IMG/VR virus record: IMGVR_UViG_3300010399_000414
Coordinates: 1-23,966 of that record
Direction: 5' to 3' (one strand)
Origin: a virus
DNA: 23,966 nt
Part shown: piece after piece, positions 5,449 through 23,064 of the stretch
Position numbering within the stretch: position 1 is the first letter of the stretch
Layout of the letters: every line of letters begins with the position of its first letter
Notes under the pieces: model-generated
The model's input: only the letters and a program-made list of their open reading frames with translations
Told to the model about the DNA's origin: nothing
Databases searched by the model: none
Program-made: the position numbers and the translations under genes

Positions 5449-5904
5449 ATGGCTCGCGACCCTGTAAAGGTGAAGGCCGCCAAGGCCCGATATGCCGCCA
5501 GTGAGAAGGGGCAGGCCGCGGCACTGCGATACAGGACGAGCGAGAAGGGGCGCGCGGCCCAGGCCCGCGCCGACGCCAAGCCCAATATCGTGGCTTCCCG
5601 AAGGCGTCGGCGTGGGGTCACGAATGCATCGGGGGAGCGCCGCACAGGCCCGTGTGACCTGTGCGGCCGTCACATTGACGGCCTGCACCAGGACCACGAC
5701 CACGTGACCGGGATGGCGCGTGGCTGGCTGTGTAATGGATGCAACCTAGGACTGGGCCAGTTGGGCGACACAGTCGAAAGTCTCCAGCGCGCCGTCGACT
5801 ATCTCACCGTCGCCCGGACCGCGCACGAAGCTTCTTGTTCCGCATCACCTCAGCCACACGCTTTGCATACACTTGCTCCGGAGTCTCCTCCGGTTGCCAA
5901 GTAG
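5449..5904 (+). CDS. recombination endonuclease VII-like HNH nuclease
   Basis: 151 residues. The nuclease core is CDLC (C69, C72), LHQDHDH (D82, H83, H85) and LCNGC (C95, C98), followed by N99LGLGQLGD. This is the zinc-binding beta-beta-alpha arrangement of the endonuclease VII family, which cuts branched DNA. Two near-copies of RYxxSEKGxAA (from residues 14 and 27) precede it, a basic repeat common before phage HNH domains. The final ~34 residues lie antisense to the 3' end of the large terminase gene (101-base overlap) and look low-complexity, so they may be a passive extension. It probably works in junction resolution or genome clearing before packaging. Confidence 0.85.
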   Translation: MARDPVKVKAAKARYAASEKGQAAALRYRTSEKGRAAQARADAKPNIVASRRRRRGVTNASGERRTGPCDLCGRHIDGLHQDHDHVTGMARGWLCNGCNLGLGQLGDTVESLQRAVDYLTVARTAHEASCSASPQPHALHTLAPESPPVAK

Positions 5905-7168
5905 TCATGTGGGAGAAGCCGCCCCCTTGTAGTGAATACTGCAAGGCATCCGTCGCTTCATCGACGTAGCCCTCGCGGTGGTCGTCTTTCTCCAGGTTCC
6001 ACGGGAGTCCGCGCCATTCCTCCAGCAGCTGCCCGCACCGCCCTATGGACCCCCGTAGCGTGCGCGCATCGAGCATGGTCCGGACCTGTTCAATTCTAAG
6101 ACGCCGCGCCCGCTTGTCCGCGGGCTGACACGGCAACCCGTACGACCGAGCCAGGGTTTCGCACAGTGTCCGCCCACCACCCCCCGCGGCGTCCACGAAC
6201 ATTTCCGTGACGTGGTGCTGGGAGCGCATCCGCTCTGCGATGGCGGCCGCACGGGGCAGTGTGAGTTCCGCCTCGCGGTATACCTCCAGCACGTGGGCTC
6301 CGGGGTTGGGATACCGCGACCGCACCACAGCAAACCCCATACCATCTGACCACCCCAAATCGATACCCATCGACGTGTAGTTCGTGGACGGGGGCGGGGG
6401 TTCGTAGAACTCCCCGTCGAGGTCCAGCGTCGGCCGGTAGATGAGAATCCCCTCCTCCTGGACCCGGTGGCCGAGGTACTCCCGCCGGAACGTGGCGTTA
6501 TCGGCCCGCCCCGCGAACCGTTTCGCCAGGGCCTCGGCGATGAACTCCGACCCGGGCTTCTCCAGGTGGGGGTTCTCCGCGGCTGTCCAGCAGAAGTGTG
6601 CCCCCGCCTCGGCGCACGCCGCCATCTCGTCCTCGTAGAACCCCACGCCGGTGTCGGCGGGGGTCCCCAGTAAACACAGGTCCCCGTCCGTGTCCGCGAG
6701 GGTGGGTTCGATGACGTCCACCACCAGGTACTCCAGGAGCGGGTCGGCGATTTGGCCGCACTCGTCCACGCCGACGCGGTGGATTTTCGGGACGCCGCGG
6801 ACGAGGTTAGCCGACCGCCGGTCCTTACAGCCCATGTAGTACAATGTGAACCCGTTGGGCCAGGTCCACGTGGCGTCTGTGCCATTGTAGACCGCTCCCC
6901 ACGAGAACCGGTCGTTGAACTCTCGCAGGGCGTCCCAGCCGATTTTGATGGCCGACTCCTGGGACAGCGCGAGGAATATCGACGACTGGTTGGGGCGCCG
7001 CTTCCACTGCTCGACCAGCCACAACGTCACGGAGAACGACTTCCCCGCCCGGCGGCCGGAACAATTCGTCCGTCGTTTCGCACAAGAGGAGACGAATTGT
7101 AACTCCGGCGGGGTGAGGGCGCGGCGCTCCTCGGGGATTTTGAGGAGGCGCGTCAACGGCTGTAGCAC
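5804..7168 (-). CDS. terL: terminase large subunit (ATPase and nuclease)
   Basis: 454 residues from a GTG at 7168. ATPase domain: Walker A SGRRAGKS (K43), Walker B RVGVDE and coupling motif LLGTP. Nuclease domain: SMGIDLGWSDG, FVDAAGGGG and YVDEATDALQYS, each supplying an acidic metal ligand. It powers DNA translocation into the prohead and cuts the concatemer. The GTG is chosen because the upstream extension runs through the divergent portal gene, and TATACT lies six bases before it. The gene is alone on its strand, divergent from the portal and convergent with the endonuclease VII-like gene, which is unusual because terL normally precedes portal on the same strand. Confidence 0.93.
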   Translation of the reverse strand: MLQPLTRLLKIPEERRALTPPELQFVSSCAKRRTNCSGRRAGKSFSVTLWLVEQWKRRPNQSSIFLALSQESAIKIGWDALREFNDRFSWGAVYNGTDATWTWPNGFTLYYMGCKDRRSANLVRGVPKIHRVGVDECGQIADPLLEYLVVDVIEPTLADTDGDLCLLGTPADTGVGFYEDEMAACAEAGAHFCWTAAENPHLEKPGSEFIAEALAKRFAGRADNATFRREYLGHRVQEEGILIYRPTLDLDGEFYEPPPPSTNYTSMGIDLGWSDGMGFAVVRSRYPNPGAHVLEVYREAELTLPRAAAIAERMRSQHHVTEMFVDAAGGGGRTLCETLARSYGLPCQPADKRARRLRIEQVRTMLDARTLRGSIGRCGQLLEEWRGLPWNLEKDDHREGYVDEATDALQYSLQGGGFSHMTTWQPEETPEQVYAKRVAEVMRNKKLRARSGRR

Positions 7169-7174
7169 GGGTTC

Positions 7175-7180
7175 AGTATA
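7175..7180 (-). promoter_or_regulatory. candidate -10 box for leaderless terL mRNA
   Basis: On the minus strand TATACT ends six bases before the terL GTG, which would place transcription start on or beside the start codon. There is no Shine-Dalgarno sequence and no clear -35 box. The intergenic space shared with the portal gene is only 49 bases, so both divergent promoters must be compact. Confidence 0.4.
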
Positions 7181-7197
7181 GCGCGTTCGGCCGGCCG

Positions 7198-7220
7198 GTG
7201 CTAGACTAGGGGACACTATG
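7198..7220 (+). promoter_or_regulatory. shared start element copy 1 (portal operon)
   Basis: GTGCTAGACTAGG (7198-7210) is followed by GACAC and the portal ATG. The same 13 bases, GACAC and ATG occur at the head of the other late operon (copy 2). The element contains an extended -10 (TGC-TAGACT) ending ten bases before ATG, and CTAG-A-CTAG forms an odd palindrome. AGGGG could also act as a ribosome site. Either a phage-specific late promoter with a very short leader or an operator would fit. Confidence 0.6.
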
Positions 7221-9203
7221 ACTGGAGACCTGCCCTGGTGGGAGATGGACGCGCGGGCCGCCGCGCTGGCCATCGTGGAACTGGAGGACCAATACTCCCG
7301 GGATTTCATGTGGCGCCGCATCCGCGCCCGGCGCCTGGCCGGCGGATACCATGGCCGGGACCTGGCCACGCCGTTCGCTCGGGACGCCCGGTTCTCGTGG
7401 CGGGACGAGTCGGCCGACCCGGACCGCGAGACCATCACGCTCATCCGGAACAAGTTCTACGAATACGTCGAGACCCACGTGGGCAAAATCGGCGCGGTCG
7501 ACGCGCCCCAGCCCGCCCTCATGGTCACCGATGGCGACTGGGAGCTGAAGCGCAAAGTGGAGCTGTCCTCCCGGCTGCTCCTGGCCGAGTACGGTATGCG
7601 CCAGGGCCAGTTCGCGAACCTGCACGCACTGTGCCACCAGGGTCTCCGCATCGCCGACGCGGCCACTGGGTCAGTCGCCGCGAAGGTGTACCCCTGGCCG
7701 GAGGAGGACCGCGTGGTCGTCGAGCTGCACGACACGCTGGACATGTTCCTCGACGACACAGAGCTGTCCTACGGGGTCCCGCGCACGTTCGGTGAGGTCA
7801 CGTGGTGGCCACCGTATCGGCTGGTCCGCTCGTACCCGTCCCACCGCGAGGCCATCGTCAACGCCGTCGAGGCGCGCACCGACCGGGGCGGGCTGGTGTT
7901 CTCGGGCCGCACGGCACGCGCCGAGCTGGTCCCGATATGGGAAGCCTGGGCCGTCAAAATCGGTGAGGAGGCCGGGCGCCACATCGTCACGCTCCGCGAC
8001 GGGACCGTGCTACTGGACGAGGAATGGGACTCCGACGAGCCGCCCTTCGCGTTCCTGCACACGAACCCTAACCTCACGGGATTCTGGGCGAATCCGATGA
8101 TGGACATCGTGTACGAGGAAATCCTGAAGGCCAACGAAATCATCCAGCGTTGCGACGAAGCCCACACCCACACGGCCAAGCAGGTACACTACGTGGTGGA
8201 GTCCGACATCGTCGACATCAACGAAGTACTCGACGTCGACACCATCACGGTGGTCCGGCTGAAAAACGCGGCCGCCCGCGTGGCCGTCGAGAACCCCGCG
8301 CCGTTCAACCGCATCGACCTGGAGCTGCTCCACGAGCACGAGTCCGGCATCGCCCGCGCGCTCGGCATCGATGAGATGCACTCGGCCGCCAAGTCCGAGC
8401 CGGGCCTCCCGTCCGGCGTGGCCCAGCGCGAAGCCGGCGCCCGATTCGACAACCGGCACGCCACCACGCACCGTGCGTACGTTCAGTGGGTCGCCGTCGA
8501 CATCGGCCGGCACGTGCTCCGGGCCCAGCGGAAGCTGTACGAGCAGAACACCGCGTTCAAGCGCCGGTGGACGGGGGATTTCTTCTCCCGGGACATCGAA
8601 GCGAAGGACGTTGTGGACCTGGACTTGAACGCCCTGCACGTGCAGGTCAAGCCGACCGGGGAGAAAAAGAACACCCCGGAGGAGCGCGTCCAGTACGCCG
8701 AGGAGCTGCTGGAAAAGGGCGCCATCCCGTTCGAGGCGTACCTCATGGCCATCCAGACCTACGACACCCCCGGCGAAACGAAAGTCATCAAGACCCAGCG
8801 GCGCTGGGTCGCGTGGCAGATGGACCGCTGGTTGATGGCGAAGGACGCCGAGCTGAACGAGCCGGACTTCTACCAGGGGCCCCGGCCGTGGATGCGCAAA
8901 ATCGATGCGATGGTCCAGGTCGTCGACGCCCTGATGGAAGCGGAGCTGTCCGGCGTCCCCGTCGAGCGGCTCCAGTACTTCCTCGATTTCATTGCGGAGT
9001 TGTCCGAGGCCATGTCCGCGGAAGTCAACCCGCCCCAGGCCGCCGCGCCGCCACTCGGTGCTCCGGCGCCGATGCAGGGCTCGGCCGGCATGAACGTCGG
9101 CCTCGGTGGCTCCGTCGGTGGGCCGCCGGGCGCCGCGCCGATGGCCGCGCCACCTGGCGCCCCCGTCGCCGGGCCGCCCCCAGCTGGGCCGTCCGGCCTG
9201 TAA
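7218..9203 (+). CDS. portal protein (head-tail connector)
   Basis: 661 residues. Order, length and features fit a phage portal: an alpha/beta N-terminal half, then the long helical segment NPMMDIVYEEILKANEII...CDEAHTHTA, a HESGIARALGIDEM segment with SGVAQREAGARF, and a Pro/Ala/Gly-rich tail from about residue 605. Portals form the dodecameric ring at one capsid vertex, docking the terminase and later the tail. The ATG at 7218 has AGGGG at 7208-7212. A scaffold-like gene follows 56 bases downstream, which supports the call. Portals diverge strongly, so the assignment rests on size, context and the central helical region. Confidence 0.8.
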   Translation: MTGDLPWWEMDARAAALAIVELEDQYSRDFMWRRIRARRLAGGYHGRDLATPFARDARFSWRDESADPDRETITLIRNKFYEYVETHVGKIGAVDAPQPALMVTDGDWELKRKVELSSRLLLAEYGMRQGQFANLHALCHQGLRIADAATGSVAAKVYPWPEEDRVVVELHDTLDMFLDDTELSYGVPRTFGEVTWWPPYRLVRSYPSHREAIVNAVEARTDRGGLVFSGRTARAELVPIWEAWAVKIGEEAGRHIVTLRDGTVLLDEEWDSDEPPFAFLHTNPNLTGFWANPMMDIVYEEILKANEIIQRCDEAHTHTAKQVHYVVESDIVDINEVLDVDTITVVRLKNAAARVAVENPAPFNRIDLELLHEHESGIARALGIDEMHSAAKSEPGLPSGVAQREAGARFDNRHATTHRAYVQWVAVDIGRHVLRAQRKLYEQNTAFKRRWTGDFFSRDIEAKDVVDLDLNALHVQVKPTGEKKNTPEERVQYAEELLEKGAIPFEAYLMAIQTYDTPGETKVIKTQRRWVAWQMDRWLMAKDAELNEPDFYQGPRPWMRKIDAMVQVVDALMEAELSGVPVERLQYFLDFIAELSEAMSAEVNPPQAAAPPLGAPAPMQGSAGMNVGLGGSVGGPPGAAPMAAPPGAPVAGPPPAGPSGL

Positions 9204-11515: not shown

Positions 11516-12002
11516 CTCCGCCCTCGCCCCGCCGGGCCATGAACTGACCCCCGACTTGGCCGCCCAGCTGATAGCCGCGGCCAAGTCGGGGTTGTTCAAG
11601 GAGGCGTGCGCCCGGTGCGTGGGCGTGTCCGAGGATACCCTGGACATGTGGTTGCGGATGGGGCTATCCCCCGGCGCCACGAACCCCTATCGCGACTTCG
11701 CACGGGTGTTCGTAGCCCAAGAGGAGGCCCAACAGATACCCCACATCAACGCCATCAAGTCGGCCGCCGCGGTCGACTGGCGTGCTAGTATCGCGTGGCT
11801 CCAGCTACGCCATCCGGATGCGTGGGGCCCCCGCGCGACGCGGAACAACTCGGCGGCCAGCCTCCGCCCGACGGAGGATGACTCCGTGGCCGAGGCAGCG
11901 ATGGTCCGTCAGCTCGTCCAGTCGAACCCGGCGGTGCTGGAGCGCATTCTGGTGGAGGCGGGTTGGACCCCGCCTCCGACCCCGTCAACCGACCCGAGGT
12001 AG
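11502..12002 (+). CDS. terS: terminase small subunit-like DNA-binding protein
   Basis: 166 residues. A helix-turn-helix lies at about residues 31-52 (LFKEACARCVGVSEDTLDMWL). The next segment, ending in NAIKSAAAVDWRASIAWLQLRHPDAWG, is typical of small terminase proteins that recognise packaging sites. The C-terminal part is acidic and helical and may contact TerL. The ATG lies in the last codons of the RNA ligase gene (14-base overlap). Its 3' end overlaps the minus-strand 1421-residue gene by 18 bases. It sits 4.3 kb from terL and on the other strand, which is uncommon. It could alternatively be a phage regulator. Confidence 0.68.
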   Translation: MSSADSALAPPGHELTPDLAAQLIAAAKSGLFKEACARCVGVSEDTLDMWLRMGLSPGATNPYRDFARVFVAQEEAQQIPHINAIKSAAAVDWRASIAWLQLRHPDAWGPRATRNNSAASLRPTEDDSVAEAAMVRQLVQSNPAVLERILVEAGWTPPPTPSTDPR

Positions 12003-15000
12003 CCCCGCGGGCGCGGCCGACGCCGCGGCCACGTGTGACACGTTGCCGCTCGACGTCGGGCCCCCGCCGGGCTTCGTCGGTACGGCCTGCTCGTAGGCGT
12101 AGGCCGTCATAGCCGCCACGGTGGACGACATGGCGGGGTCCGCGAACGACCCGTCCCCGCCGAACAGCCGCCCGTACGACACGCGCGACTGGATGCTGGT
12201 GGGGGGCCCTTCGTCCCGGACCGTGAGGTAGGCCGCCACGCGGATTTCGGCCAGGAGGTCCGGGTACAACGCCTCGGTGGTCTCCATCAGTTCCACCCCC
12301 ACGTGCCCCTGGGCCGCGGCGTTGGCCCACGCCTCCTTCGGTCGGAGCGCGGCGTCCTCGTACCGTGCGTACTTCGCGATGGCCTCGGCCGACACGGGGA
12401 TGTCCCGCATCGAAATCGAGTTCTTCTTGGTGGCGTTGGGGAGGCGTTCTTTCAGGAACGCAGCCGCGGCGAACACCCCGCCGTGGGCCTTGGGCTGGAC
12501 CTCGGGCGGGACGTCCCGGAGTCCCTCCGCCACCCGGTCGACCAGCTCCTGGGGGTTCTCGCCCCAGGACTGAAACTCGGCTTGACGTTTAGCCAGGTCC
12601 GACCGGCTGTAGACCGCACGCGCAGCGAGCCGCGTGGCCAGCCGCCCCACCGTCGGGGAGAACAGCCGCCGGGCCACGTCCGCCACGAGGCGCCCGCGGG
12701 CCTGCTTGAACAGGCTGGCCGCACCGACGAATCCCATCCCCACACCACCCGCGCCGGCGGTACCACCGTCAGGTTTCTCCGCAGAATCGAGCGCCGCCGC
12801 GCCGATGGCGGGGATGGCTAGGTAACCCACGTCCTTCAGCCCGCCCGCGACGGTGGCGGGGATTTCCTGCATCGTGAACGTGAAGTTCCCCGTGTCGGGG
12901 TTGACGTACCGGCCGGTGACCTTGACCCGGGTCCCGGGCGTCAGGACCATTTCCATTTCGGCCGGGTTGACCCCGATGAGCGCCCCCGCGGAGTCCACCT
13001 TCGTGAACCGTAGTTCGTGCGGCCCGAAGTCCGTATCCGGATAGTACGAGGTTGAGATGTGGTTCGGGACTACGTACTCGTCTTTCGTGAGCAGTTCCGC
13101 CAGCCCCGAGTCCTCTAGGTCCACGTACCGGTACAAGTCCCCGTGCTTCGTGGGGTTCATGACGGTGAGTTTGTCCATCGCCGACTCGAACGACGCGGCG
13201 TTGCTGGGGTCGGTGGGCTCCTTGAACTCCGACACCAGGCCCGTACGCTGCTCGTACTTGATGGAGTGCGACCCGCCGACCCATTCGTTGATGGCGGCCT
13301 GCTCGGGCTCGTCCAGCTTCCGGGCGGCTTCGCGAGTGACTTCGAACAGCTTCTTGACGCCGGGCAGTTGCGGGGACTCGGCCATTCGGGCACTGTCCGT
13401 CAGGTGCCCAAAATAGTGCGTAGTGGTCTGGGGCGGAGGCGGGGGCAGCGCCTCGATAGCCTGCTTGACGATGGCCTTCGCCTCGGCCCGGCCTTCCTCG
13501 GTCAGCGCGAACTTCGCGCCGAGACGCATCGACGCCCCCAGCTTCCCCCGCTTCGTCAGGGCCATCAGCCCGAGCCCTAGCCCGGCCGACGCCCCGGCCA
13601 CGCCGTCTTCGCCGTCGGCCGCCGCGGCCGACGCACCAGCACCCAGCGTGATGAGCCCGGCGGCCTTCAGGGTGTCGGCGTTGCGGCGCAGGAAGTCCCC
13701 CAAAAGGGAACCATCGGGAGCCTTTTGTCCCGTGGCGTTCAGTCCGTCGACCACGTGGGCGAACTCACCCTCCGTGAGGGCCTGCATCCGCTTCGCCTCG
13801 GCGGACCGTGCGGCCTCGCCCGGCTGGACATGGCCTTCGAAGTACGCCATCCCCTCGGTTCGGTACGGGGCTGGGTGGGTGGGCGCCATCGCCTCGCCCG
13901 CGAGCGGGACCTCCGAGCCTTCACGCATCGACGGGAGCGCGGACTCGCCGGCCAGCTCCGATTCGAGCTTCGACGGCGGGGCCATCGGCTCCCACCCGCC
14001 GGCCGCGCCCCGTGCGGGGGTGTTGCCCGGCTCGGGCAACGGCCGGGCAGAGTCCGGTGACCACACCCCGTACTGCTCGGGGGCCCGGTGCGGGTCCCAC
14101 GCCGCGGCGCCCTGGTGGTACGCGCCGCCGGCCTCGGGCCGCTCGGTCGCTGTGCGGGCCAGCCCGCTCGCGTCGGTGGGACGCTCATCGGGGAATCCCC
14201 CACCGCCGGGCTCACGCGGGGGCGGCTCGGCGCCGACCGAAATCGGGCGCTGTTGGGGCGTGATGGCTTCCATTCCCGCGGGCCGGCGGGGGGTCTCCTG
14301 ACGTCCGACCTGGCCTGGGCCGGGGAACGGCCCCGCCGGGGCCTCCGGGGGCGCGGCCACACCAACGGCGCGCTGGGGCTGGCCCGCGATGGGGCCGGCC
14401 TCCCCGGGCGGCCGTAGGGACTCCGCCTTCGGGAACGGCGCGTCCATGATGTCGTCCGTGAGCCGGTCGGTGAGGCCCTCCGTCACGTCCTTGCCCGCAG
14501 CGGCGGGAAGGGCGTCCTTGGCGAGGAGTTCCGCCATCGAATGCAGCTCCCCCTTGAACAGCCCCAGCTTGGCCGCGGCCTGACCGAACCAGTGCCCCAT
14601 TCGTGCCCCGCGGAAGGCCCCAGCACCGACCGCGCCCCCCATGGGCCCGGCAGCCGCCAGCCCCAACCCCGCCGCCACGGCGGTGCCAGCCGCGTCGGCT
14701 ACGGTACTACGGGCGGCTGTACGCTCGGCCGCCGCGTTGATGAACGTGGAGTTCGCCATGTTCTTTCGGAGGCGGCGTACCGATTCGAGCGCCTCCCGGG
14801 CCGCCTTCGGGGCGTCGCGCTCGCCGGCTCGGGCGATAGCTTCCGCACCGTCGAGGTACTGGGTGAACAATTCCCGCGCCCGGTGTGTATCCGGGCTGGT
14901 CCCACCCAGTTGGGTGAGGAATTTACGCATTTTGCTGGGTTCACCTCGGTACGTCGTGAACCCCTGGGCGTCCTTGCCCGTGGCGAAGTGCAGGTCGGCC

Positions 15001-16250
15001 AGCACGGTCTTGCGGGCCGGGAACCATTTCTCGTGAAACGGGACGTTGTACTCGCGCTGCATCCGGGCCGCGGCCTCACCCCACGCATCCTCGCGCAGTA
15101 GCGCCGTGCGGGTGGCTTCCTCGGCCGCATCGATGGACGCTAGACCTTCGCGGGACAGCCACGCGGACCCCGGGTTCGTGTCGTACGCCTGGTGCAGGTC
15201 CTGGCGGTATTCCTGGAGCGCCTGGCGGTTTTCGTCTAGGATGCGCCACAGCTTCTTTCCTTTAGGCGCGGCCTCCAGCGCAGCGATGCGCTCGTCGAGC
15301 TGCTTGGCCAGGCGCTTGGCCGGGCCGCCGCCCGCGGACTCCAGCTCGTCGGTCAACGCGGTCCGGAGCCGCTGTAGTCCCTCTACCGCCCCGACGTTGA
15401 TTTCATGCTGTACGGCCGGATGGTCCACGACCGACGCCATGATGCGGGCGCGCTTCTTATCCTGGCGGCCCACCTCCGCCGTGGCGGTTTCCAGCGTGTC
15501 CAGGTCCTTCGCGCCGAGGTCCGCGAGCTGGTCGTGGTACACGTCGGCGTGCTGGGCGGTGCGGTAATCCCCCACCCACCCGCCCTTCGACAGCGTCCGC
15601 TCGGCGTCGGCCGCGACGGCGTCGCGTGCGGCTCGCGTGATGAGATTCCGGGCGCCGCCCAGGGTTTTCGAAATGGTCCACGCCCCGCCTCGGCCCATGA
15701 CTTCCGCGGCAACACCGGCCAGGGCCGCGTCGGTGAACGAGAAGTTCTCTCCGGCCTCGTGTGACTGCTCGGCCTCGATTTGGGCCCCGCCGACGGCGGC
15801 GTTGATACCGTAATCCGCCGCGACCGCGCCGGCTCGCGTAGCCAGTGACGCACCAGCCGCACCAGCGCGGATAGCCGACCCGGCCACACCACCGAGTACC
15901 ATCGCGGGGGCCTGACCTAGTACACTGGCACCCATGGCCGCGTACGGGTGTTCGGCCGTGTACCGGGCCGCGGTCGCCCCCGACCGCGCGTCACGCTCGG
16001 CCAGACCGAACGTCGCGCCGGAGACCGCCTTCGCCGTGAACTCAGTAACCGGGTCGTACCCGGTTTTCGTGTCCGTCGCCAGGCCGGTCGGCGCCCCGGC
16101 GGGGCGGGCCTCGACTTCAGACGCCTGGGCCTGGCGGACCTGTTCGGGGGTTAGGGATTGGTACCCCGCGTTCGCCGCGCCTTGGGCGTCGGCTTCGTCG
16201 AACACGACGACTTCGCCGGTGGTCGGGTCTTTTAGGTATAGGTCAGCCAT
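11985..16250 (-). CDS. giant internal virion/ejection protein with ADP-ribosyltransferase domain
   Basis: 1421 residues, last gene of the minus-strand operon, starting at an ATG overlapping the previous stop (TAATG). The N-terminus (LKDPTTGEVVVFDEADAQGAANAGY) resembles the opening of other large phage internal proteins. Gly/Ala-rich hydrophobic stretches at about 104-155 and 517-545 could insert in membranes. About 610-810 is Pro/Gly-rich and disordered. About 940-1135 matches the ADP-ribosyltransferase fold: HGDLYRYV with R1041, STS at 1066-1068 and E1098-x-E1100 in AEMEMVLTPGTRVKV. The last ~260 residues are helical and unrecognised. Placement after a transglycosylase-bearing protein suggests ejection into the host with the DNA, where the domain could modify a host protein. 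The role as an internal protein is inference; the R/STS/ExE pattern is visible. Confidence 0.7.
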   Translation of the reverse strand: MADLYLKDPTTGEVVVFDEADAQGAANAGYQSLTPEQVRQAQASEVEARPAGAPTGLATDTKTGYDPVTEFTAKAVSGATFGLAERDARSGATAARYTAEHPYAAMGASVLGQAPAMVLGGVAGSAIRAGAAGASLATRAGAVAADYGINAAVGGAQIEAEQSHEAGENFSFTDAALAGVAAEVMGRGGAWTISKTLGGARNLITRAARDAVAADAERTLSKGGWVGDYRTAQHADVYHDQLADLGAKDLDTLETATAEVGRQDKKRARIMASVVDHPAVQHEINVGAVEGLQRLRTALTDELESAGGGPAKRLAKQLDERIAALEAAPKGKKLWRILDENRQALQEYRQDLHQAYDTNPGSAWLSREGLASIDAAEEATRTALLREDAWGEAAARMQREYNVPFHEKWFPARKTVLADLHFATGKDAQGFTTYRGEPSKMRKFLTQLGGTSPDTHRARELFTQYLDGAEAIARAGERDAPKAAREALESVRRLRKNMANSTFINAAAERTAARSTVADAAGTAVAAGLGLAAAGPMGGAVGAGAFRGARMGHWFGQAAAKLGLFKGELHSMAELLAKDALPAAAGKDVTEGLTDRLTDDIMDAPFPKAESLRPPGEAGPIAGQPQRAVGVAAPPEAPAGPFPGPGQVGRQETPRRPAGMEAITPQQRPISVGAEPPPREPGGGGFPDERPTDASGLARTATERPEAGGAYHQGAAAWDPHRAPEQYGVWSPDSARPLPEPGNTPARGAAGGWEPMAPPSKLESELAGESALPSMREGSEVPLAGEAMAPTHPAPYRTEGMAYFEGHVQPGEAARSAEAKRMQALTEGEFAHVVDGLNATGQKAPDGSLLGDFLRRNADTLKAAGLITLGAGASAAAADGEDGVAGASAGLGLGLMALTKRGKLGASMRLGAKFALTEEGRAEAKAIVKQAIEALPPPPPQTTTHYFGHLTDSARMAESPQLPGVKKLFEVTREAARKLDEPEQAAINEWVGGSHSIKYEQRTGLVSEFKEPTDPSNAASFESAMDKLTVMNPTKHGDLYRYVDLEDSGLAELLTKDEYVVPNHISTSYYPDTDFGPHELRFTKVDSAGALIGVNPAEMEMVLTPGTRVKVTGRYVNPDTGNFTFTMQEIPATVAGGLKDVGYLAIPAIGAAALDSAEKPDGGTAGAGGVGMGFVGAASLFKQARGRLVADVARRLFSPTVGRLATRLAARAVYSRSDLAKRQAEFQSWGENPQELVDRVAEGLRDVPPEVQPKAHGGVFAAAAFLKERLPNATKKNSISMRDIPVSAEAIAKYARYEDAALRPKEAWANAAAQGHVGVELMETTEALYPDLLAEIRVAAYLTVRDEGPPTSIQSRVSYGRLFGGDGSFADPAMSSTVAAMTAYAYEQAVPTKPGGGPTSSGNVSHVAAASAAPAGLPRVG

Positions 16251-18649
16251 TACAGAGAGCGCCCCTTCGCGCGGATGGACCCAGCAGTTATATCACCCCC
16301 GTCGGCCGGACGCCAGGACGGGTTCTGCTCCCAAGCCTTGGAACCCTTGCGGTACGCCACCTGGCCGTCGGGCTTGCCGAGCAGGCCCGGCGCGGCCACC
16401 GCCAGGTACATCTCTCCCGCGTCCGCGTCCGACTTCAGACCCTTTTCCTGGAAGTACCGGACCACGAGGGGCATTTGCTCCTCCACGGTCAGGTCGCCCA
16501 GGTCGTCGTGCGTCACGTTTTCGTACCCGGGCGGCTTCGTCATGCCGTCGAACACATCGGGCATGAACTGAATCAGCCCTGACGCGCCCGACGGGTTCTT
16601 GGCCTTGGGGTTGCCCCCGGACTCAAACGCGACGATTCGCGACATGGCGTCGGGGTTGTACCCCGCCTCACTAGCGGCGGCCTGGGTAGCGCGCCGCCAC
16701 TCGTGCCGCGACTCCGCTAAAGGGGGCTGCGCCGGGCCTCCACCCGTGGGAGCCGCGCCGGCCGTCGGTGTCGTGGGTGCGGCCGGGGACCCGGGCTCGT
16801 TGGCCTTCAGGACGTCGGCTTCCCCGCCCGCCGCGCCCGGTACCTTGAACCCCGTGGAACGCTTCGGCGTGGGGGCCCCGGCCCGCGGAGTGGACGCGCC
16901 TTCCAGGTACTTCAGGTAGGCCTCGCCACGGCCCGGCGCGACTCCGTCGGCGACGGCTAGGGCGCCCTGGTGGGCGCGCTGTACGTACGACCGCACGGCC
17001 TTCGATGAGGTTTCCCAGTTGCTAGTTTCGAGGATATCCGTTAGCCCCTTCACCTCTTGTACGCCATCAAAGAACTTCGACGTGGAGGACGATTGCTTGA
17101 ACGCGAGTTTCAACTCCTCTTTCAGCGAACGGGCCTCCAGCACGTCCTTCGACGACTGGTTATTGAAAATCTTCGCCGACGTGGCCGAGCCGAACTCACC
17201 CGTGAGGCCCTCACCGGGGAGGGTGCCGCCGTTATTACGGGCCAACTGGTCCAGCCGGCTGGCGATTTGCTCGGCACGCTTCGCGCCGGTCAGTAGCCCG
17301 GGTAAATTGGCCCCCTTCGGGTCCGTGGCCTCCTGGTGCTTCTTGGCGTACTGGGGGCCGAGGATGGACTGGAGCTGTTGCTCGGCCTGGTTCGTCGGGG
17401 CCGCGGGGGTGGGGAGCGGCCGCCGCTCCTGGGTGAACCGCTCGTCCGTACGGCGCTGGACGTGCAACCCGATGGCCTGGGAGGCTTCGGCGGCCTTGAC
17501 GCGCATCTGGGCGCCGGCCGTCGACACCGCGGGCGGTAGCTCGGCCAGGCCGACCTGCTTGGCCTGGAGCTTGGCGCGGTCCTCGAATACCTTGCCGAGC
17601 TGCATTCGGACGGACGCCTCGGCGGTCTTGGCGTCACCCAGTTCCGCCATGCGCTTGTTCAGCTTGGACGTCTTGTCAGCACGCTGGTTCGCGATGAATC
17701 GCTCCTGCGCGGCGGATAGCGCCTGCATCATTTGTCCCATCGCGGGGTTGGCACCCTGGGTGGAACCCGACAGGAACCCGGACAGCGCCAACGCCACCCA
17801 CGCAGCGACCTGGCGGCCGGGCGAGTCCTTGTAGAAGTCCTCCTCAATCGGGGTGTCTTCGATGACCTTGACGACGCGCTGGGCTTCCTCGGTGTGTATC
17901 TGGGCGCGGTGCGCGTCGTCCGCGAGCTGTTGCTCCCGGGCGTTCGCCTGGTCCAGCTCGAATTGGTTCTGGGTCGCCGCGGCGTCCTGACGGGCCTGGG
18001 CGTCGGCGTCCAGGGTGTCGGCGATGTCGTTATACGCAGCCGGGACATCCTGGGCCAGTTGGGTGGGGTCGGTGACCGTGTCATTCGTGGTCACGCCGAC
18101 GGACTCGGTGGTCGCCGTCGGGTCGGTCGGGCCGCCCGTGCCGGGCGCCGTCACTATGGGGGCGTTCGGGTCGGGCTGGGCGGCCGGCAGTTCACCGCTA
18201 GCGTCGGGCAGTGATAGTGCAGCCGGCGGAGTGCCGGCCGGGCGGAACTCGTCGCCCGTGCGATACACCATCGGTCCCGACGGTGTCAGCGAGTTGCCGG
18301 GCTCGAATCGGCCGACCGGGGAGAACCCCTGGGAGCCTTGGGACTGCAACCAGGCATCGCGCGCCGGGTCACCCGGAGGGGGGGCTCCGTCAATGCCCTC
18401 GAACTCGCTGGCCTGGGTCTGGACGAATCCGCCCGCACCGGCGGGCGCCATCGGTGGCCCCATCGGGGCCTGGGGCACCTTCGGGAGCGTCTCCGCCTCC
18501 GACGTGGGGCGGGTCTCGGTGCGACCGTCAGCGAACTCGACCATGGCGTACGACGGGTCGATGGAATCGGGCGTGATGGACACGACCTGGTCACCGCCGA
18601 CGGACGGCCCGCCGGTCGCTTCGAGCACGGATGGGTCTAGCGGGTCCAT
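16250..18649 (-). CDS. internal virion protein with C-terminal lytic transglycosylase domain
   Basis: 799 residues. The N-terminal ~220 are Pro/Gly-rich and probably disordered. Coiled coil follows at about 220-265. A hydrophobic segment AAWVALALSGFLSG lies near 280. A long helical region leads to a C-terminal lysozyme-like SLT domain from about 650, with FESGGNPKAKNPSGASGLIQFMP giving the catalytic E676 and the GA-x-GLxQ-x-MP signature. The domain cleaves peptidoglycan glycan strands and would open the wall during DNA entry. T7 gp16 carries its transglycosylase at the N-terminus, so the order is reversed here. Start and stop are TAATG overlaps with both neighbours, implying coupled synthesis of three virion proteins. 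Confidence 0.82.
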   Translation of the reverse strand: MDPLDPSVLEATGGPSVGGDQVVSITPDSIDPSYAMVEFADGRTETRPTSEAETLPKVPQAPMGPPMAPAGAGGFVQTQASEFEGIDGAPPPGDPARDAWLQSQGSQGFSPVGRFEPGNSLTPSGPMVYRTGDEFRPAGTPPAALSLPDASGELPAAQPDPNAPIVTAPGTGGPTDPTATTESVGVTTNDTVTDPTQLAQDVPAAYNDIADTLDADAQARQDAAATQNQFELDQANAREQQLADDAHRAQIHTEEAQRVVKVIEDTPIEEDFYKDSPGRQVAAWVALALSGFLSGSTQGANPAMGQMMQALSAAQERFIANQRADKTSKLNKRMAELGDAKTAEASVRMQLGKVFEDRAKLQAKQVGLAELPPAVSTAGAQMRVKAAEASQAIGLHVQRRTDERFTQERRPLPTPAAPTNQAEQQLQSILGPQYAKKHQEATDPKGANLPGLLTGAKRAEQIASRLDQLARNNGGTLPGEGLTGEFGSATSAKIFNNQSSKDVLEARSLKEELKLAFKQSSSTSKFFDGVQEVKGLTDILETSNWETSSKAVRSYVQRAHQGALAVADGVAPGRGEAYLKYLEGASTPRAGAPTPKRSTGFKVPGAAGGEADVLKANEPGSPAAPTTPTAGAAPTGGGPAQPPLAESRHEWRRATQAAASEAGYNPDAMSRIVAFESGGNPKAKNPSGASGLIQFMPDVFDGMTKPPGYENVTHDDLGDLTVEEQMPLVVRYFQEKGLKSDADAGEMYLAVAAPGLLGKPDGQVAYRKGSKAWEQNPSWRPADGGDITAGSIRAKGRSL

Positions 18650-20073
18650 TACTTCTTGCTCCCCGCGTCACGAATGGCCTTCACCTCGGCCGCGAGCGCG
18701 GACAGTGCGGCGTGGTCGGCGAGCGCCAACCGACCCGTATCCACGTACAGCCCGTCGGCGCCTTCGACGACCACGGTCTTACCGATTTTGGATTTGGCGA
18801 GGTCTTGGGCCATGGGCCCGTAGTTCAGGCCCGCGCGCTGGCCGGGGGCGTTGGGTTGCTTGTACCGGTACAGCTTGCCCTTCGTGCGGCCGAGGAAGTC
18901 CTCCAGGTCCCGGAGGTCCGGGTCACGGATGTCGAACTTCGACCGGATGTCGGACTTCATCGCCAGCCCGCCCGCGACGGCCGCGCCAGCGCCGAAAATC
19001 CCACCCACGACATCCTTCATCGTCAGCTTGCCAGACTGGGCAATTTGCTTCAACGCCACCGTCGTATTCTGGTCGATGCCGTACTTCTTGAGCAACGCGT
19101 CCACGTCGGACTCACGGGCCTGCTCCCCGAGCTTCTGCAACTCCACGTTGACATTGCGGAGGTTTTCGATGTCCTGTTGCTTCAGTTGGGCGTCGATGCC
19201 GTACTTTTTAAGGTACGCATCCATGTTCGCCATCCCGGTCTGGACATCGATTTTCGCCAGCTCCAACTCGTTCGTGGCCTTCTGCCCGAGCGTGTTCGCC
19301 AGACCGGTCGCGTTCTGGGTCCGGAGCTGCCCCGCGGCGACTTCGTCGGCGTTGCGCTGGATGACGGATTGCTGGGCGCCTTGGGCGACCATCGCGGCTT
19401 GCTGACCCTGGGCCTGGCGCATGTTGCCCGCACGTGCCGTCGCGGTCGACAGCCCGCCGGACGCGATGCCGCCGGCCTGGGCGGCCGCGCGGTCAGTGGC
19501 CTGGCGCAGAAACGCCTGGTTCCCGAACGGGTCCACGCCGGACAACCGGTCCAGCTCAGATTGGAACGTCGACACGGCCCGGTCGTAGCCCTGGGCGGCC
19601 TGGTCGTACGCGGTACGGTCGACCTTCGTGTACCCCGGGTCGTACCCGATGACGCCACCGGCGGGCTTGGGCCCGCCCGAGCCCACGGGCGCGGCGCCCT
19701 GGCCAGCCGCGGTGGCGGCCTGCTCGGGCGTCTCGACGTAGTGGGCGCCCCACTGGGGCTGCTGGGACGCGACCTGGGCGTTCGTCTGGGGTGCGGCCGA
19801 CGCCCCGGCGTTGGCGTACGGCACGACGGGGGCCTGGCCGGCGGGGGACTGGCCACGTGACTGGGCCAGGTTCTGGTCCATCGTCTCCTTGGCCGAGGCG
19901 CCCTGGACTTCCCACGAGTTCGTGGCCGGGACGTATACCCACTTGTACCCCACACCGGGGTTGCTGGTAGGCATCGGGGGCTTGGCCACGGGAGCCGCGG
20001 GGGCAGGCGCACCGCCGTACTGGGCCGCCGCGGCCGTCGGGTCGGAATACTGGTCGTAATCGGTCATCGACAT
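18649..20073 (-). CDS. virion protein with C-terminal S74-type intramolecular chaperone domain
   Basis: 474 residues. Residues 1-125 are Ala/Pro/Gln-rich. The middle is helical, with two copies of LKKYGID about 40 residues apart. The last ~101 residues resemble the peptidase S74 domain: K-S374-D-I-R-S-K379, then LYRYKQP, a GPMAQDL segment, VDTGRLALADHAAL and a helical end. In endosialidase-type chaperones the Ser and the Lys five residues later form the self-cleavage dyad. Both are kept here, so cleavage before S374 is predicted. Such domains usually end beta-helical fibres, but this protein is mainly helical and sits next to internal virion proteins. Function beyond virion component is uncertain. 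No strong ribosome site is seen; the ATG at 20073 is nine bases after the previous stop. Confidence 0.65.
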   Translation of the reverse strand: MSMTDYDQYSDPTAAAAQYGGAPAPAAPVAKPPMPTSNPGVGYKWVYVPATNSWEVQGASAKETMDQNLAQSRGQSPAGQAPVVPYANAGASAAPQTNAQVASQQPQWGAHYVETPEQAATAAGQGAAPVGSGGPKPAGGVIGYDPGYTKVDRTAYDQAAQGYDRAVSTFQSELDRLSGVDPFGNQAFLRQATDRAAAQAGGIASGGLSTATARAGNMRQAQGQQAAMVAQGAQQSVIQRNADEVAAGQLRTQNATGLANTLGQKATNELELAKIDVQTGMANMDAYLKKYGIDAQLKQQDIENLRNVNVELQKLGEQARESDVDALLKKYGIDQNTTVALKQIAQSGKLTMKDVVGGIFGAGAAVAGGLAMKSDIRSKFDIRDPDLRDLEDFLGRTKGKLYRYKQPNAPGQRAGLNYGPMAQDLAKSKIGKTVVVEGADGLYVDTGRLALADHAALSALAAEVKAIRDAGSKK

Positions 20074-20082
20074 AGCGTCAGG

Positions 20083-23064
20083 TCACTTTCGGCTGGCAGA
20101 CGCGAGCCGCGAGGGCCCGTTCCGCTTGGTGTAGGATACCACGAGGCCGGTCAGCCGGCAACCTTCCGTGGTGGTTACGGTGGGGGTCATCGTGATGCGG
20201 AACCGGAACCGGTCCCCGCGTTGGCGGGCCGGGAACCACTCCCGCTGGAACGTGTCGCCGGTCGTCAGCCCGGACACGGTGTGGGTGCCGAGGGACGTCC
20301 AGGACTGCCCGTCGTCGTAGGAGATTTCCCCCAGGATGGCCGCGGCGGCCTGGAACTCACCCAGGACCTCCACGCACGCGAGCCGGCCCTGGCCGGCCAT
20401 TTCGAACGGGGCTACTTGTCCCGTAGTGACACGCAAGGCCACCGCCGTGGCCCCGGACGCGCCGTCGCCGTACGCGGCGGACTCCTGGGCCCACACCACG
20501 CCGTCGGACGCCACGGCGTACAGCCGCCCTCGGTGCCCCAGGAGCGCGATGGGTGTGAACGGGAGCCCGTCGCCGAACCACTGCTGGGTGTCCAGCTTGC
20601 GTGCAATCAGCGTGGCGTTGGATGCGGCCCACGCGGCGAGGTTGTCGGCGGACTCGTACCCGGACCCCACGACGGTGATGCTGGTCGAGAACCGGTCCTG
20701 GGCCGAGTGGTCGAGCACGGGGGTGCCCGACCCGCGGGGGATTTGGTACATCGCGTCCGGACCCCCCAGGAACCACAGCCCCTCAGAGGTCTCCAGGATG
20801 GAGGCGGTGGAGTAGAATCCCACGTCGGCGGGGAGCCGGTGCGGGGGGTCGAACTCGCCGTTACCCGCCAGGTTCGGCCCGGCGCCGCCCGTGACGTATA
20901 GCCGGCTGGACGTCCCGATGAACGCCAGCTCGTCCAGAGCCGCTACACCCGTGATACGTCCGGCCTCGACATCGTCGAAGTATGCCTGGGCCGGGTCACC
21001 GACCAACCCGGGCTCGGCGAACCAAATCTGGGTCTCGGGGAACGATACCTGCGACCACTGCCACGCCGTGTCGGCGGACCCGAGCACCAGCCGACGTTTC
21101 GTAGCAGCGATGAACGACGACGCCCGCGGTGGGCACATTGGTAGCACACCGGACGTGGCCCCGAACTCGCCCTGGGTAACGAGTTGGGGGTTGTGGATAA
21201 GTGTAGCGTCGGGCGTTACATCGACGATAGTCACCGAATCCGTGAACGTGTCCACCGCTCCGGTGTTGGTCAGGTAGAACAGCTCCCCCGGCTGACCGGG
21301 CACCAGGCCGTTCTCCGTGCGATACAACTCGATACGCGGATTGGTGATGAGATTACCACTACGGCGCAGTGTTTTCGGCACATTGACCTGGACGGTCATC
21401 GTATCCTCCGCGCCGACCAGGGTCTGGTTGGCGGCTAGGCTCAGGTCCGAGCGGTGCGTTCGATGCTGCTCGTCTTGCCACACCAGCTGTGCGATATACG
21501 AATACGTCCCGGTCAGGGTCAGTGACCCCGACCCGTTGGACGGCGACAGACTGGCCAGTGCCGGCGCGGCCAGGCTGGTCTCCGAATACCCGTCGGTCCA
21601 CTGCATCAGCACGCCGCCCGTGATATACAGCGCGCCGGCCAGCTCAGCCGACGGCCGCCGTTCGAGACTGGCAACTTTCAGTGACTGTACCTTAGCAGTC
21701 CGGGGCGTAGTGTCGGACGGGGCCTCCGGAGTGCGGTCAATCGGGGTCAGTATCAGGGCGTCACCGGTCGGTGCTAGCGCCGGCCAGAACGGCGCGTGCG
21801 AAGTGGAGGAGTCCCGCGCTCCGATGCCGAACTCGGCATATACCCATGGCTGTTCGATGGACTGGTACGCGGCGACTCGGCCGCGGTTGCCCGAGGGGAG
21901 TGGCCCACCCAGCGTGAACCCCGCCGCGGCGAATCCGCCATTGGACAGATACCCGCCGTACAACTGGACCGACAACTGCTCGAAACTAGTGTTGGCATGC
22001 GCCAACGTCAGCCGGTTGACATACGCACGGTTCAAGTCCGACGCGCCCGATGACCGCTCGGATGCCACGAATATAGATGACCCGGTCTCGCCAATCGCAA
22101 ACCGCCCACGGATGATGGTCTGGGCGTTCAGCTCCGTCGGGCCGGCCGACGTGGTGTACGGCGACGTCCCGGAGAACGACAGCAGCGATACGCGCGAGTC
22201 GGATGCCTTCTGGAACGCGACGTGCACGCGCGTGTCGTCCAGGGTGTAAACAGTCGACGCCTTCGTGTCGGTGGCTGCAACGGTCTTGGCCGCGCCTACA
22301 ATAACACCGGCGGTCGTGAACTGCCGGTACTCCGTCGCGCCGGTGCCCGCGGTGTCCGTCGTGACCAGGTGTATCTTGCCGGGCGTGGTGTCGGTCGCGA
22401 CCGCGACGTCGAACCAGTCTTGGGTCGCTGACAGCAGCGTGGCCGTCAGCGAGAACGCCGGGGCGGTGGCCGTCGGGGTCAGTGTATACAGGTCGATTTG
22501 GGTGCCGGAGTTCTCGACCAGACCGAACGTGGACCCCAGGGACACGACCTTGCGCACGCGGGAGCCATTGCTCAGCTCCACGACGGTCAGTGTCTGGTCC
22601 GAGTCACGTTCGAACACGCGCACGACGGACCGGGTGGCCGTCTGTACCAGCACGCATCCGTACACGCCGTCGGCGGTCAGGGCTGCGGACGCACGTTCGA
22701 CGTTCGCGTTCAGGTCGGGAATGTTGCCCACGTTGCGCAACTGGGTCACCGGAGACAACGCTGCCGCGGTGTTCAGTACCCACGGGCGCGTGGCGTTCGA
22801 TTCGACTAGCACGGCCGACCGCAACCCCGAGTCCACCATCACCAGGGACGAACCCGACGAGTGTAGGTCAATCGCGAACAGCCCCGTGCCGTCCAACGCA
22901 GTCATGGTTACCGGCCGCCAGCCCCGCCGTAGCCGTAGCGACCCGCCCTGGGGGATGCGGCCGTTGCGGATGTCCGCGAACACCCCGTTGGGGAGGAGCT
23001 TTTCGTCGATGGCATCGGACATGCCCCCGACGAACGGGATAGGGAGAGACTGGAGGCGCGACAC
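20083..23064 (-). CDS. large beta-rich tail protein, possibly tail nozzle/tubular protein B-like
   Basis: 993 residues, GTG start one base after the preceding stop. The start (PFVGGMSDAIDEKLLPNGVFADIRNGRIPQGGSLRLRRGW) follows the layout of phage proteins related to T7 gp12-type tail nozzle or propeller proteins: a glycine-rich opener, a D-x-K-LLPNG segment, and N-G-R-x-x-x-G-x-L-x-x-R-x-G. The rest is Ser/Thr-rich beta repeats of propeller type (GGPDAMYQIPRGSG; GHRGRLYAVASDGVVWAQE) ending in a jelly-roll-like strand region. It would sit at the distal tail beneath the portal and contact the ejection proteins encoded downstream. The family placement rests on the N-terminal pattern, size and context only. 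Confidence 0.62.
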   Translation of the reverse strand: MSRLQSLPIPFVGGMSDAIDEKLLPNGVFADIRNGRIPQGGSLRLRRGWRPVTMTALDGTGLFAIDLHSSGSSLVMVDSGLRSAVLVESNATRPWVLNTAAALSPVTQLRNVGNIPDLNANVERASAALTADGVYGCVLVQTATRSVVRVFERDSDQTLTVVELSNGSRVRKVVSLGSTFGLVENSGTQIDLYTLTPTATAPAFSLTATLLSATQDWFDVAVATDTTPGKIHLVTTDTAGTGATEYRQFTTAGVIVGAAKTVAATDTKASTVYTLDDTRVHVAFQKASDSRVSLLSFSGTSPYTTSAGPTELNAQTIIRGRFAIGETGSSIFVASERSSGASDLNRAYVNRLTLAHANTSFEQLSVQLYGGYLSNGGFAAAGFTLGGPLPSGNRGRVAAYQSIEQPWVYAEFGIGARDSSTSHAPFWPALAPTGDALILTPIDRTPEAPSDTTPRTAKVQSLKVASLERRPSAELAGALYITGGVLMQWTDGYSETSLAAPALASLSPSNGSGSLTLTGTYSYIAQLVWQDEQHRTHRSDLSLAANQTLVGAEDTMTVQVNVPKTLRRSGNLITNPRIELYRTENGLVPGQPGELFYLTNTGAVDTFTDSVTIVDVTPDATLIHNPQLVTQGEFGATSGVLPMCPPRASSFIAATKRRLVLGSADTAWQWSQVSFPETQIWFAEPGLVGDPAQAYFDDVEAGRITGVAALDELAFIGTSSRLYVTGGAGPNLAGNGEFDPPHRLPADVGFYSTASILETSEGLWFLGGPDAMYQIPRGSGTPVLDHSAQDRFSTSITVVGSGYESADNLAAWAASNATLIARKLDTQQWFGDGLPFTPIALLGHRGRLYAVASDGVVWAQESAAYGDGASGATAVALRVTTGQVAPFEMAGQGRLACVEVLGEFQAAAAILGEISYDDGQSWTSLGTHTVSGLTTGDTFQREWFPARQRGDRFRFRITMTPTVTTTEGCRLTGLVVSYTKRNGPSRLASASRK

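What the first reader, a model, noticed from the sequence alone, without database searches (positions are those of the whole stretch)
12850..13440. ADP-ribosyltransferase domain inside a giant, probably ejected virion protein
Residues about 940-1135 of the 1421-residue protein show the R (LYRYV, R1041), STS (1066-1068) and ExE (E1098/E1100) pattern of arginine-type ADP-ribosyltransferases, in order and with preceding helices of the right type. The protein follows a transglycosylase-bearing gene and has membrane-seeking Gly/Ala segments, as expected for proteins delivered with the DNA. This would parallel T4 Alt but as one module of a huge internal protein, suggesting immediate take-over or anti-defence modification of the host on entry. 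R-STS and STS-ExE spacings are shorter than in classical toxins.
Basis: partly seen in the sequence, partly recalled or inferred. Interest (0 to 1): 0.72.

Follow-up and report, generated by a model that had tools for sequence, protein, structure and literature searches.

The report
ADP-ribosyltransferase inside giant phage protein
A bacterial virus known only from environmental DNA carries, in the middle of a very large and probably injected structural protein, an enzyme domain that likely tags host proteins with ADP-ribose as infection starts; such weapons are known, but this carrier protein is new.

Summary
The 1421-residue ORF (11985-16250, minus) has R1041, S1066-T1067-S1068 and E1098-x-E1100 as stated. 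Pfam, PHROGs, NCBIfam and PDB sequence searches find no ART. Profile comparison does: phage Alt (hhalign 86.9%, score 46.1; best of 200 shuffles 22.8), and two phage proteins that Pfam calls ADPrib_exo_Tox (92.2%, all motifs in register). A template-free model of the domain family (L009 as query, pLDDT 54.7) matches solved R-S-E ARTs (Foldseek 5e-7, prob 1.00; Z up to 10.0). R, the first two motif residues (S-T) and both Glu are invariant in 5 of 5 ART-bearing giants; the third motif residue varies.

Seven distinct giants share an N-terminal (~600 aa) and a C-terminal (~240 aa) block. Between them lies a variable stretch: ART (3), kinase-like module plus ART (2), GNAT-like module (1), neither (1). 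[quoted passage not shown] Presence in the virion, injection, activity and target are inferred. New variant of a known kind.

The parts
11985..16250 (-). giant protein, 1421 aa, carrier of the ART domain
   Evidence: single open frame; relatives L001, L009, L011, L012, L015, L028
12852..13370 (-). R-S-E type ADP-ribosyltransferase domain, residues 961-1133
   Evidence: hhalign to phage Alt 86.9% and to PF03496 phage proteins 92.2%; family model matches solved ARTs
13128..13130 (-). R1041, NAD-binding Arg of the R-S-E triad
   Evidence: conserved 5 of 5 ART-bearing giants; aligned to the Arg of T4 Alt
13047..13055 (-). S1066-T1067-S1068 (STS motif)
   Evidence: S and T invariant in 5 of 5; third residue S, A, S, G, G
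12951..12959 (-). E1098-M1099-E1100 (ExE; second Glu predicted catalytic)
   Evidence: both Glu invariant in 5 of 5; the ExE block alone aligns to the Alt ExE strand (score 28.0)
14424..16250 (-). N-terminal core of the giant, residues 1-609, shared with ART-less relatives
   Evidence: tblastn 1-604 to L015 and 5-508 to L028
11988..12716 (-). C-terminal core, residues 1179-1421, shared with ART-less relatives
   Evidence: tblastn 1179-1414 to L015 and 1174-1375 to L028
12717..14423 (-). variable middle, residues 610-1178, holding different enzyme-like modules in different relatives; a short patch near 825-865 is still alignable in most
   Evidence: alignment A3; L015 GNAT-like, L011/L012 kinase-like insert, L028 short
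14622..14678 (-). Gly/Ala-rich segment, residues 525-543, most hydrophobic of the protein (KD 1.39)
   Evidence: below the 1.6 threshold used
16250..18649 (-). 799-aa protein with SLT transglycosylase domain (residues 656-702), upstream neighbour in the same direction
   Evidence: PF01464 E 5e-7, PHROG hits incl. a family named internal virion protein with endolysin domain, over the SLT domain only
18649..20073 (-). 474-aa protein with Peptidase_S74 intramolecular chaperone (fibre or spike type)
   Evidence: PF13884 E 3.6e-6
7218..9203 (+). portal protein, used to find relatives
   Evidence: SU10_portal E 0.0016, below its curated cut-off; 49-77% identical in other contigs
5804..7168 (-). terminase large subunit
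   Evidence: PF03237/PF17289 over cut-off; phrog_2 E 2e-25

Best explanation
Residues 961-1133 are an ADP-ribosyltransferase of the R-S-E (Alt/VIP2, Pfam ADPrib_exo_Tox) type. It sits in a variable cargo stretch between two conserved blocks of a giant late protein that most likely rides in the virion of a podovirus-like phage and enters the cell with the DNA, as T4 Alt does. Shown here: the homology, the fold match and motif conservation. Inferred: NAD-dependent transfer of ADP-ribose to arginines of host proteins (ExE rather than QxE, family rule recalled), delivery at DNA entry, and a target in the host transcription or defence machinery. Host RNA polymerase is the first candidate, because no phage RNA polymerase gene was recognised in the ORFs scanned.
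For: hhalign of the 5-sequence family against an 11-sequence phage Alt profile: 86.9%, E 4.2e-6, score 46.1; 200 column shuffles: mean 13.3, sd 2.4, max 22.8; of 21 sliding blocks only those that reach into the ART region exceed 1.2%. Against Dolphis gp117/Touem01_29 (PF03496 E 1e-7 and 7.7e-7, over cut-off): 92.2%, score 47.7 against shuffle max 18.9, with helix, R, STS and ExE all in register. AlphaFold2 on the trimmed family without templates: Foldseek E 5.1e-7, prob 1.00, and the 50 listed PDB rows are ART enzymes, toxins or effectors (XopAI and Certhrax taken as ARTs from recall); VIA Z 10.0 for Plx2a, 9.8 for VIP2; phage ARTs incl. minor-capsid fusions top the viral library. R, S-T and both Glu invariant in 5 of 5. 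dN/dS about 0.30 in the ART between window and L001 (0.219/0.736), so under purifying selection. Late structural context: SLT gene directly upstream, S74 protein, portal and terminase nearby. Kinase-like module in L011/L012 is homologous to parts of four listed phage proteins annotated as ARTs and to Gordonia Forza gp78, next to the portal gene gp77.
Against: No sequence library names the domain; a plain HMM of phage Alt does not find the window protein significantly (E 0.19 among 7 proteins). Single sequences score less well and L012 alone is weak (1.7% and 0.5%). The first AlphaFold2 run, with the window as query, was poor (pLDDT 46.5) and its best Foldseek hit, an ART, was not significant (E 0.017); the useful model has L009 as query and only pLDDT 54.7. 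In the VIA listing anthrax lethal-factor rows reach Z 9.1, close to the ARTs (that part of lethal factor is recalled to be an ART-like domain). The third STS residue is not conserved. Nothing shows the protein in virions. Two of seven giants lack the ART, so it is dispensable for the carrier. No classical transmembrane segment.
Confidence: 0.66

Rival explanations
1. The ART is real and active but not an early injected effector: it is made late and acts in the producing cell, or serves superinfection exclusion or killing of competitors, like MuF toxins of temperate phages.
For: It is encoded among late structural genes, so it would be made late anyway; MuF-ART toxins of temperate phages are proposed as weapons (PMC5576092 passages).
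Against: No immunity-like gene was recognised beside it; the replication genes found (polA, endonuclease VII, helicase, primase) look lytic and no integrase was seen in the genes scanned (not searched for on its own); fusion inside a core shared with ART-less relatives points to a structural carrier.
Confidence: 0.15
2. The domain has the ART fold but consumes NAD (NADase) or modifies nucleic acid or a small molecule, for example to blunt or trigger NAD-based defence, rather than modifying host proteins.
For: [quoted passage not shown]
Against: Closest phage matches found here are Alt-type ARTs, which modify proteins; ExE is kept in 5 of 5.
Confidence: 0.1
3. The domain is a degenerate ART kept as a structural element, without catalysis.
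For: The third STS position varies (STS, STA, STG) and the region evolves faster than the cores (dN 0.54 against 0.34 for window-L009).
Against: R, S, T and both Glu are invariant across 5 distinct sequences; dN/dS below 1.
Confidence: 0.07
4. Chance motif in a non-ART domain.
For: The loose motif occurs in 54 of 1000 shuffles; no library hit.
Against: Profile scores far beyond 200 shuffles in two comparisons and fold match at E 5e-7.
Confidence: 0.02

Closest known systems
T4 Alt (RNA polymerase ADP-ribosylase carried in the particle) and the Alt/VIP2 R-S-E clade
   Same: R-S-E motifs in order, same R-STS spacing (25), profile match 86.9%; delivery mode proposed alike
   Different: Alt is a 682-aa protein with an insertion between STS and ExE (71 against 32); here the ART is one module inside a 1421-aa carrier of a small phage with unrelated flanks
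Polyvalent proteins of phages (Iyer et al. 2017, PMC5512222)
   Same: very large late phage protein with enzymatic modules of the same kinds (ART, kinase-like, GNAT-like across relatives), near virion genes
   Different: [quoted passage not shown] the window protein itself carries one recognised enzyme
Phage proteins with kinase-like module plus PF03496-type ART: Pseudomonas phages Dolphis gp117 and Touem01_29, Aeromonas phage ST4_109
   Same: ART domain related (92.2%; ST4 83.1%); kinase-like module shared with L011/L012
   Different: no similarity to the window giant at tblastn sensitivity; in Dolphis the gene lies among unannotated genes, with no named head gene in the stretch read; ST4 is below the PF03496 cut-off
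MuF-ART fusions and portal/minor capsid-ART fusions of phages
   Same: ART tied to a head-associated carrier (PMC9503650 section 27; BFVD rows named minor capsid or portal)
   Different: no MuF or portal domain recognised in the giant
T7-type internal virion proteins (gp15/gp16)
   Same: large late proteins in tandem, one with SLT (T7 layout recalled)
   Different: PHROG match of the neighbour only over the SLT domain and none for the giant; homology of the giant not shown

Membership tests
R-S-E ADP-ribosyltransferase superfamily (Alt/VIP2; PF03496) | Arg in strand 1, ST(S) motif, ExE (or QxE) in order | tested here: met
   R1041, S1066-T1067, E1098/E1100; invariant in 5 of 5; third S not invariant
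R-S-E ADP-ribosyltransferase superfamily (Alt/VIP2; PF03496) | ART fold (split beta sheet with N-terminal helices) | tested here: met
   family model, L009 as query: Foldseek 5.1e-7, listed PDB rows are ARTs, Z up to 10.0; model confidence only 54.7
R-S-E ADP-ribosyltransferase superfamily (Alt/VIP2; PF03496) | sequence homology to established members | tested here: met
   direct Pfam match absent
R-S-E ADP-ribosyltransferase superfamily (Alt/VIP2; PF03496) | NAD-dependent mono-ADP-ribosylation of a macromolecule | not testable with these tools
   needs the protein
Polyvalent proteins (phage) | two or more recognisable domains of the conflict repertoire in one polypeptide | tested here: inconclusive
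   window protein: ART only; L011 and L012: ART plus a kinase-like module with no convincing PDB or Pfam match; abstract of PMC5512222 speaks of 2 to 15 domains
Polyvalent proteins (phage) | encoded near late virion genes | tested here: met
   SLT, S74, portal and terminase genes around it
Polyvalent proteins (phage) | ART of the H-Y-D (Tox-ART-HYD2) type as described for the class | tested here: not met
   motifs are R-S-E; class description
T7-type internal virion (ejection) proteins | homology to gp15/gp16 or presence in the virion core | tested here: inconclusive
   PHROG gives no meaningful match for the giant and matches the neighbour only over SLT; presence in virion not testable
MuF toxins | MuF domain fused to a toxin domain | tested here: inconclusive
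   no Pfam family at E up to 1 in the giant; remote MuF not excluded

The most novel reading that the evidence does not exclude
A lineage of small podovirus-like phages injects a giant carrier protein with a cargo bay in its middle: conserved entry and exit blocks, and between them interchangeable host-modifying enzymes (R-S-E ART, kinase-like, GNAT-like), each reaching the cytoplasm as part of the ejected channel or core protein. Swapping cargo would let a phage of about 43 kb retool its first strike without changing its ejection machine. On the tree of the conserved blocks the GNAT-like L015 sits beside the ART-bearing L011/L012 (bootstrap 92-94), as a swap would give, but a tree with the ART-bearers together is not rejected (AU p 0.128).
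Probability: 0.35. Interest if true: 0.66.

Novelty: new variant of a known kind. Interest (0 to 1): 0.48.

Why it matters
Injected ARTs are known mainly from large contractile-tailed phages: a 2022 survey puts ARTs in 30% of myoviruses but only 3% of siphoviruses and podoviruses (PMC9503650 section 13). Here five distinct environmental phages (records of 12 to 43 kb, some of them fragments) have an R-S-E ART that none of the family libraries used flags, built into a giant carrier protein. If it is ejected, the carrier offers a set of natural cargo variants with which to test how folded enzymes pass through a phage tail and what first-strike protein modification does for a phage in which no RNA polymerase of its own was recognised. 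It also shows that counts based on Pfam-level matches miss ARTs of this sort.

Tried and rejected
Sequence libraries first: Pfam, PHROGs, NCBIfam and PDB sequences gave no ART for the domain or giant. In PDB the best profile row was a Cas7 subunit at E 0.01 and is treated as chance.

Relatives: tblastn of the giant and of the portal against 50,697 phage records found nothing; scans of bacterial and archaeal genomes with giant and portal profiles found nothing, so host and lifestyle are unknown. Four portal relatives (L008, L013, L014, L027) gave no giant because their contigs end before its place; they are not counted among the seven.

Structure: the first AlphaFold2 run (window as query, 226 aa) was poor, and its Foldseek list mixed C3 exoenzymes with cereblon at non-significant E. 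The second run used a trimmed core with L009 as query; the query was chosen after seeing that L009 matched the Alt HMM best.

Rejected: 'unusually short R-STS spacing' (equals T4 Alt); 'membrane-seeking' in the sense of transmembrane helices; cargo swap as shown fact (AU p 0.128); RNA polymerase absence as shown fact (PF00940 found nothing in 7 records, but also nothing in the 14 controls; a PHROG scan of 10 chosen ORFs out of 39 listed in one related stretch named none). The kinase label for the L011/L012 module is by eye and recall: no convincing Pfam or PDB match. The GNAT label for L015 is sub-threshold (PF13673 E 0.0011, 19.4 bits against cut-off 23.6) and no phage relative was found.

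Papers: PMC5512222 passages and sections 9-11; PMC9503650 passages and sections 13 and 27; PMC11654794 and PMC5576092 passages only; others search listing only. In seven searches no listed title or shown abstract start described this protein; full texts beyond those named were not read.

Full report
WHAT IS THERE. The window is a 23,966-base virus record that makes up its whole entry. The minus-strand ORF 11985-16250 encodes 1421 residues. Neighbours: upstream and in the same direction a 799-aa protein with an SLT transglycosylase domain, then a 474-aa protein with an S74 chaperone, then a 993-aa protein without convincing matches. Elsewhere in the window: family-A DNA polymerase, dATP/dGTP pyrophosphohydrolase-like, YfbR-like, metallophosphoesterase and endonuclease VII genes, terminase large subunit, and a portal with a weak SU10-portal match.

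IS IT AN ART. Family libraries say nothing. The motif alone is not decisive: a loose version appears in 54 of 1000 shuffles of the protein, a tight version in 0 of 1000, both written after the fact. Relatives were found through the portal and the giant. They give seven distinct giants: window; L001 (L002 and L003 taken as the same virus from their identical match values and ORFs); L009 (with L010); L011; L012; L015; L028. The domain profile rings in 5 of the 7 records searched (the five are its own source sequences, so the news is the two misses, L015 and L028). In those five, R, S-T and both Glu are invariant, while the third position of STS is S, A, S, G, G.

Profile comparison: the five-sequence family against T4 Alt plus ten other phage Alt domains gave 86.9%, E 4.2e-6, score 46.1. 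Unrelated profiles gave 0.1-0.2%. Two hundred column shuffles reached at most 22.8; a reversed profile gave 15.1; of 21 sliding blocks along the giant, those over the ART score highest, and the block that begins after STS (1084-1309) separately aligns NPAEMEMVLTPGTRVKV with the ExE strand of Alt. Against the ART ends of Pseudomonas phages Dolphis gp117 and Touem01_29, which Pfam itself names ADPrib_exo_Tox (E 1e-7 and 7.7e-7), the trimmed family gave 92.2% over 132 columns, with the helix before R, the R, STS and ExE all in register; the real score was 47.7 against 18.9 for the best of 200 shuffles. Middle segments of the ART-less L015 and L028, and the kinase-like module, gave at most 0.32%.

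Fold: AlphaFold2 without templates on the 226-aa window segment was poor (pLDDT 46.5) and its Foldseek hits were not significant, though the first was C3 exoenzyme. The trimmed family with L009 as query gave pLDDT 54.7, pTM 0.47. Despite the modest confidence, Foldseek returned 100 PDB matches at E up to 0.001; the 50 rows shown are ART enzymes, toxins or effectors (XopAI and Certhrax taken as ARTs from recall), best E 5.1e-7, prob 1.00. VIA-align gave Z 10.0 (Plx2a, 3.3 A over 151 residues), 9.8 (VIP2, 3.9 A over 158) and 9.5 (C3 of C. limosum); the only other group in the list is anthrax lethal factor, at Z 9.1 and below. I recall that part of lethal factor to be an ART-like domain, but did not test it. 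In the viral library the first rows are phage ARTs, with portal and minor-capsid proteins among them.

WHAT CARRIES IT. The giants share residues 1 to about 600 and 1179 to the end; L015 matches 1-604 and 1179-1414, L028 5-508 and 1174-1375. The middle differs: ART alone in window, L001 and L009; a module of about 250 aa plus ART in L011 and L012; a GNAT-like stretch without ART in L015 (PF13673 E 0.0011 on the segment, below the curated cut-off); a short middle in L028. The extra module of L011/L012 looks kinase-like by eye and recall (glycine-rich start, Lys, late Asp-Asn), but has no convincing PDB or Pfam match. It is homologous to parts of phage proteins annotated as ARTs (Dolphis, Jeremy, ST4, fHe-Yen8-01) and to Gordonia phage Forza gp78, which lies between the portal gene gp77 and, two genes on, the ART gp80; in phage DSL-LC01 it is part of a 3289-residue protein, with a capsid protease gene three genes downstream. 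So kinase-like module and ART recur together in otherwise different phages. In the tree of the conserved blocks L015 groups with L011 and L012 (94/97 and 92/96, not at the tool's starred level), as a cargo swap would give, but a tree that keeps the five ART-bearers together is not rejected (p-AU 0.128). The ART evolves somewhat faster than the flanking blocks but under constraint (window-L001: dN 0.219, dS 0.736; N block 0.179, 0.96; C block 0.204, 0.612).

HOW IT MOST LIKELY WORKS. Shown: R-S-E ART homology and fold, conserved active-site residues, a conserved carrier with a variable middle, and a late structural gene neighbourhood. Inferred: the giant is packaged, enters the cell with the DNA (the SLT neighbour opening the wall, Gly/Ala segments perhaps helping passage), and the ART modifies host proteins, probably on arginine because the motif is ExE (recalled rule), in the first minutes. 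T4 Alt is the model: injected and acting on host RNA polymerase (PMC5512222 passages; section 9). No RNA polymerase gene was recognised in the window ORFs scanned or in ten chosen ORFs of a related 43-kb record; the PF00940 search is uninformative because its controls were empty. A phage that depends on host RNA polymerase from start to end would gain from the Alt strategy. Anti-defence action is an open alternative.

COMPARISON. It works like T4 Alt and like polyvalent proteins. By the tests here it is a member of the R-S-E ART superfamily. [quoted passage not shown] It differs from MuF-ART and portal-ART fusions by its carrier. Large phage proteins with R-S-E ARTs do exist in databases (Dolphis gp117, 1222 aa; BFVD rows of 1192, 1201 and 1285 aa), so the step beyond the known is the carrier and its variable middle, not the enzyme. 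Hence 'new variant of a known kind', interest 0.48.

Noticed in passing
window 23274-23807 (-): Protein with a Band_7/SPFH domain (PF01145 E 2.8e-19) at the head of the structural gene run; unusual content for a small phage (judged from recall).
   Followed up: no
L011:11340-12077 (-), L012:6458-7219 (-): About 250-aa kinase-like module (GSNEGG start, NWDV...DN...DNG) shared with ART-annotated proteins of Pseudomonas, Aeromonas and Yersinia phages and head-side proteins of Gordonia phages; no convincing Pfam or PDB match.
   Followed up: partly
L015:15222-15932 (-): GNAT-like stretch in the place of the ART (PF13673 E 0.0011, below cut-off).
   Followed up: partly
window 5804-7453 (-) against 7218-9203 (+): The terminase frame stays open about 285 bases past its likely start into the antisense of the portal gene, and this antisense part looks conserved in tblastn; probably a shadow of portal conservation in a GC-rich genome.
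   Followed up: no
window 20083-23064 (-): 993-aa structural-region protein with no match in 50,697 phage records; among the loci blasted it matched only L001 and L003.
   Followed up: no
L028:14080-17388 (-): Most distant giant (1103 aa) with a short middle; a stretch in its second half looks like a winged helix by eye.
   Followed up: no
L052:5656-11188 (+), Gordonia phage Forza: gp78 (kinase-like module) and gp80 (PF03496 ART, E 7e-18) follow the portal gene gp77: the same two activities as separate genes.
   Followed up: partly
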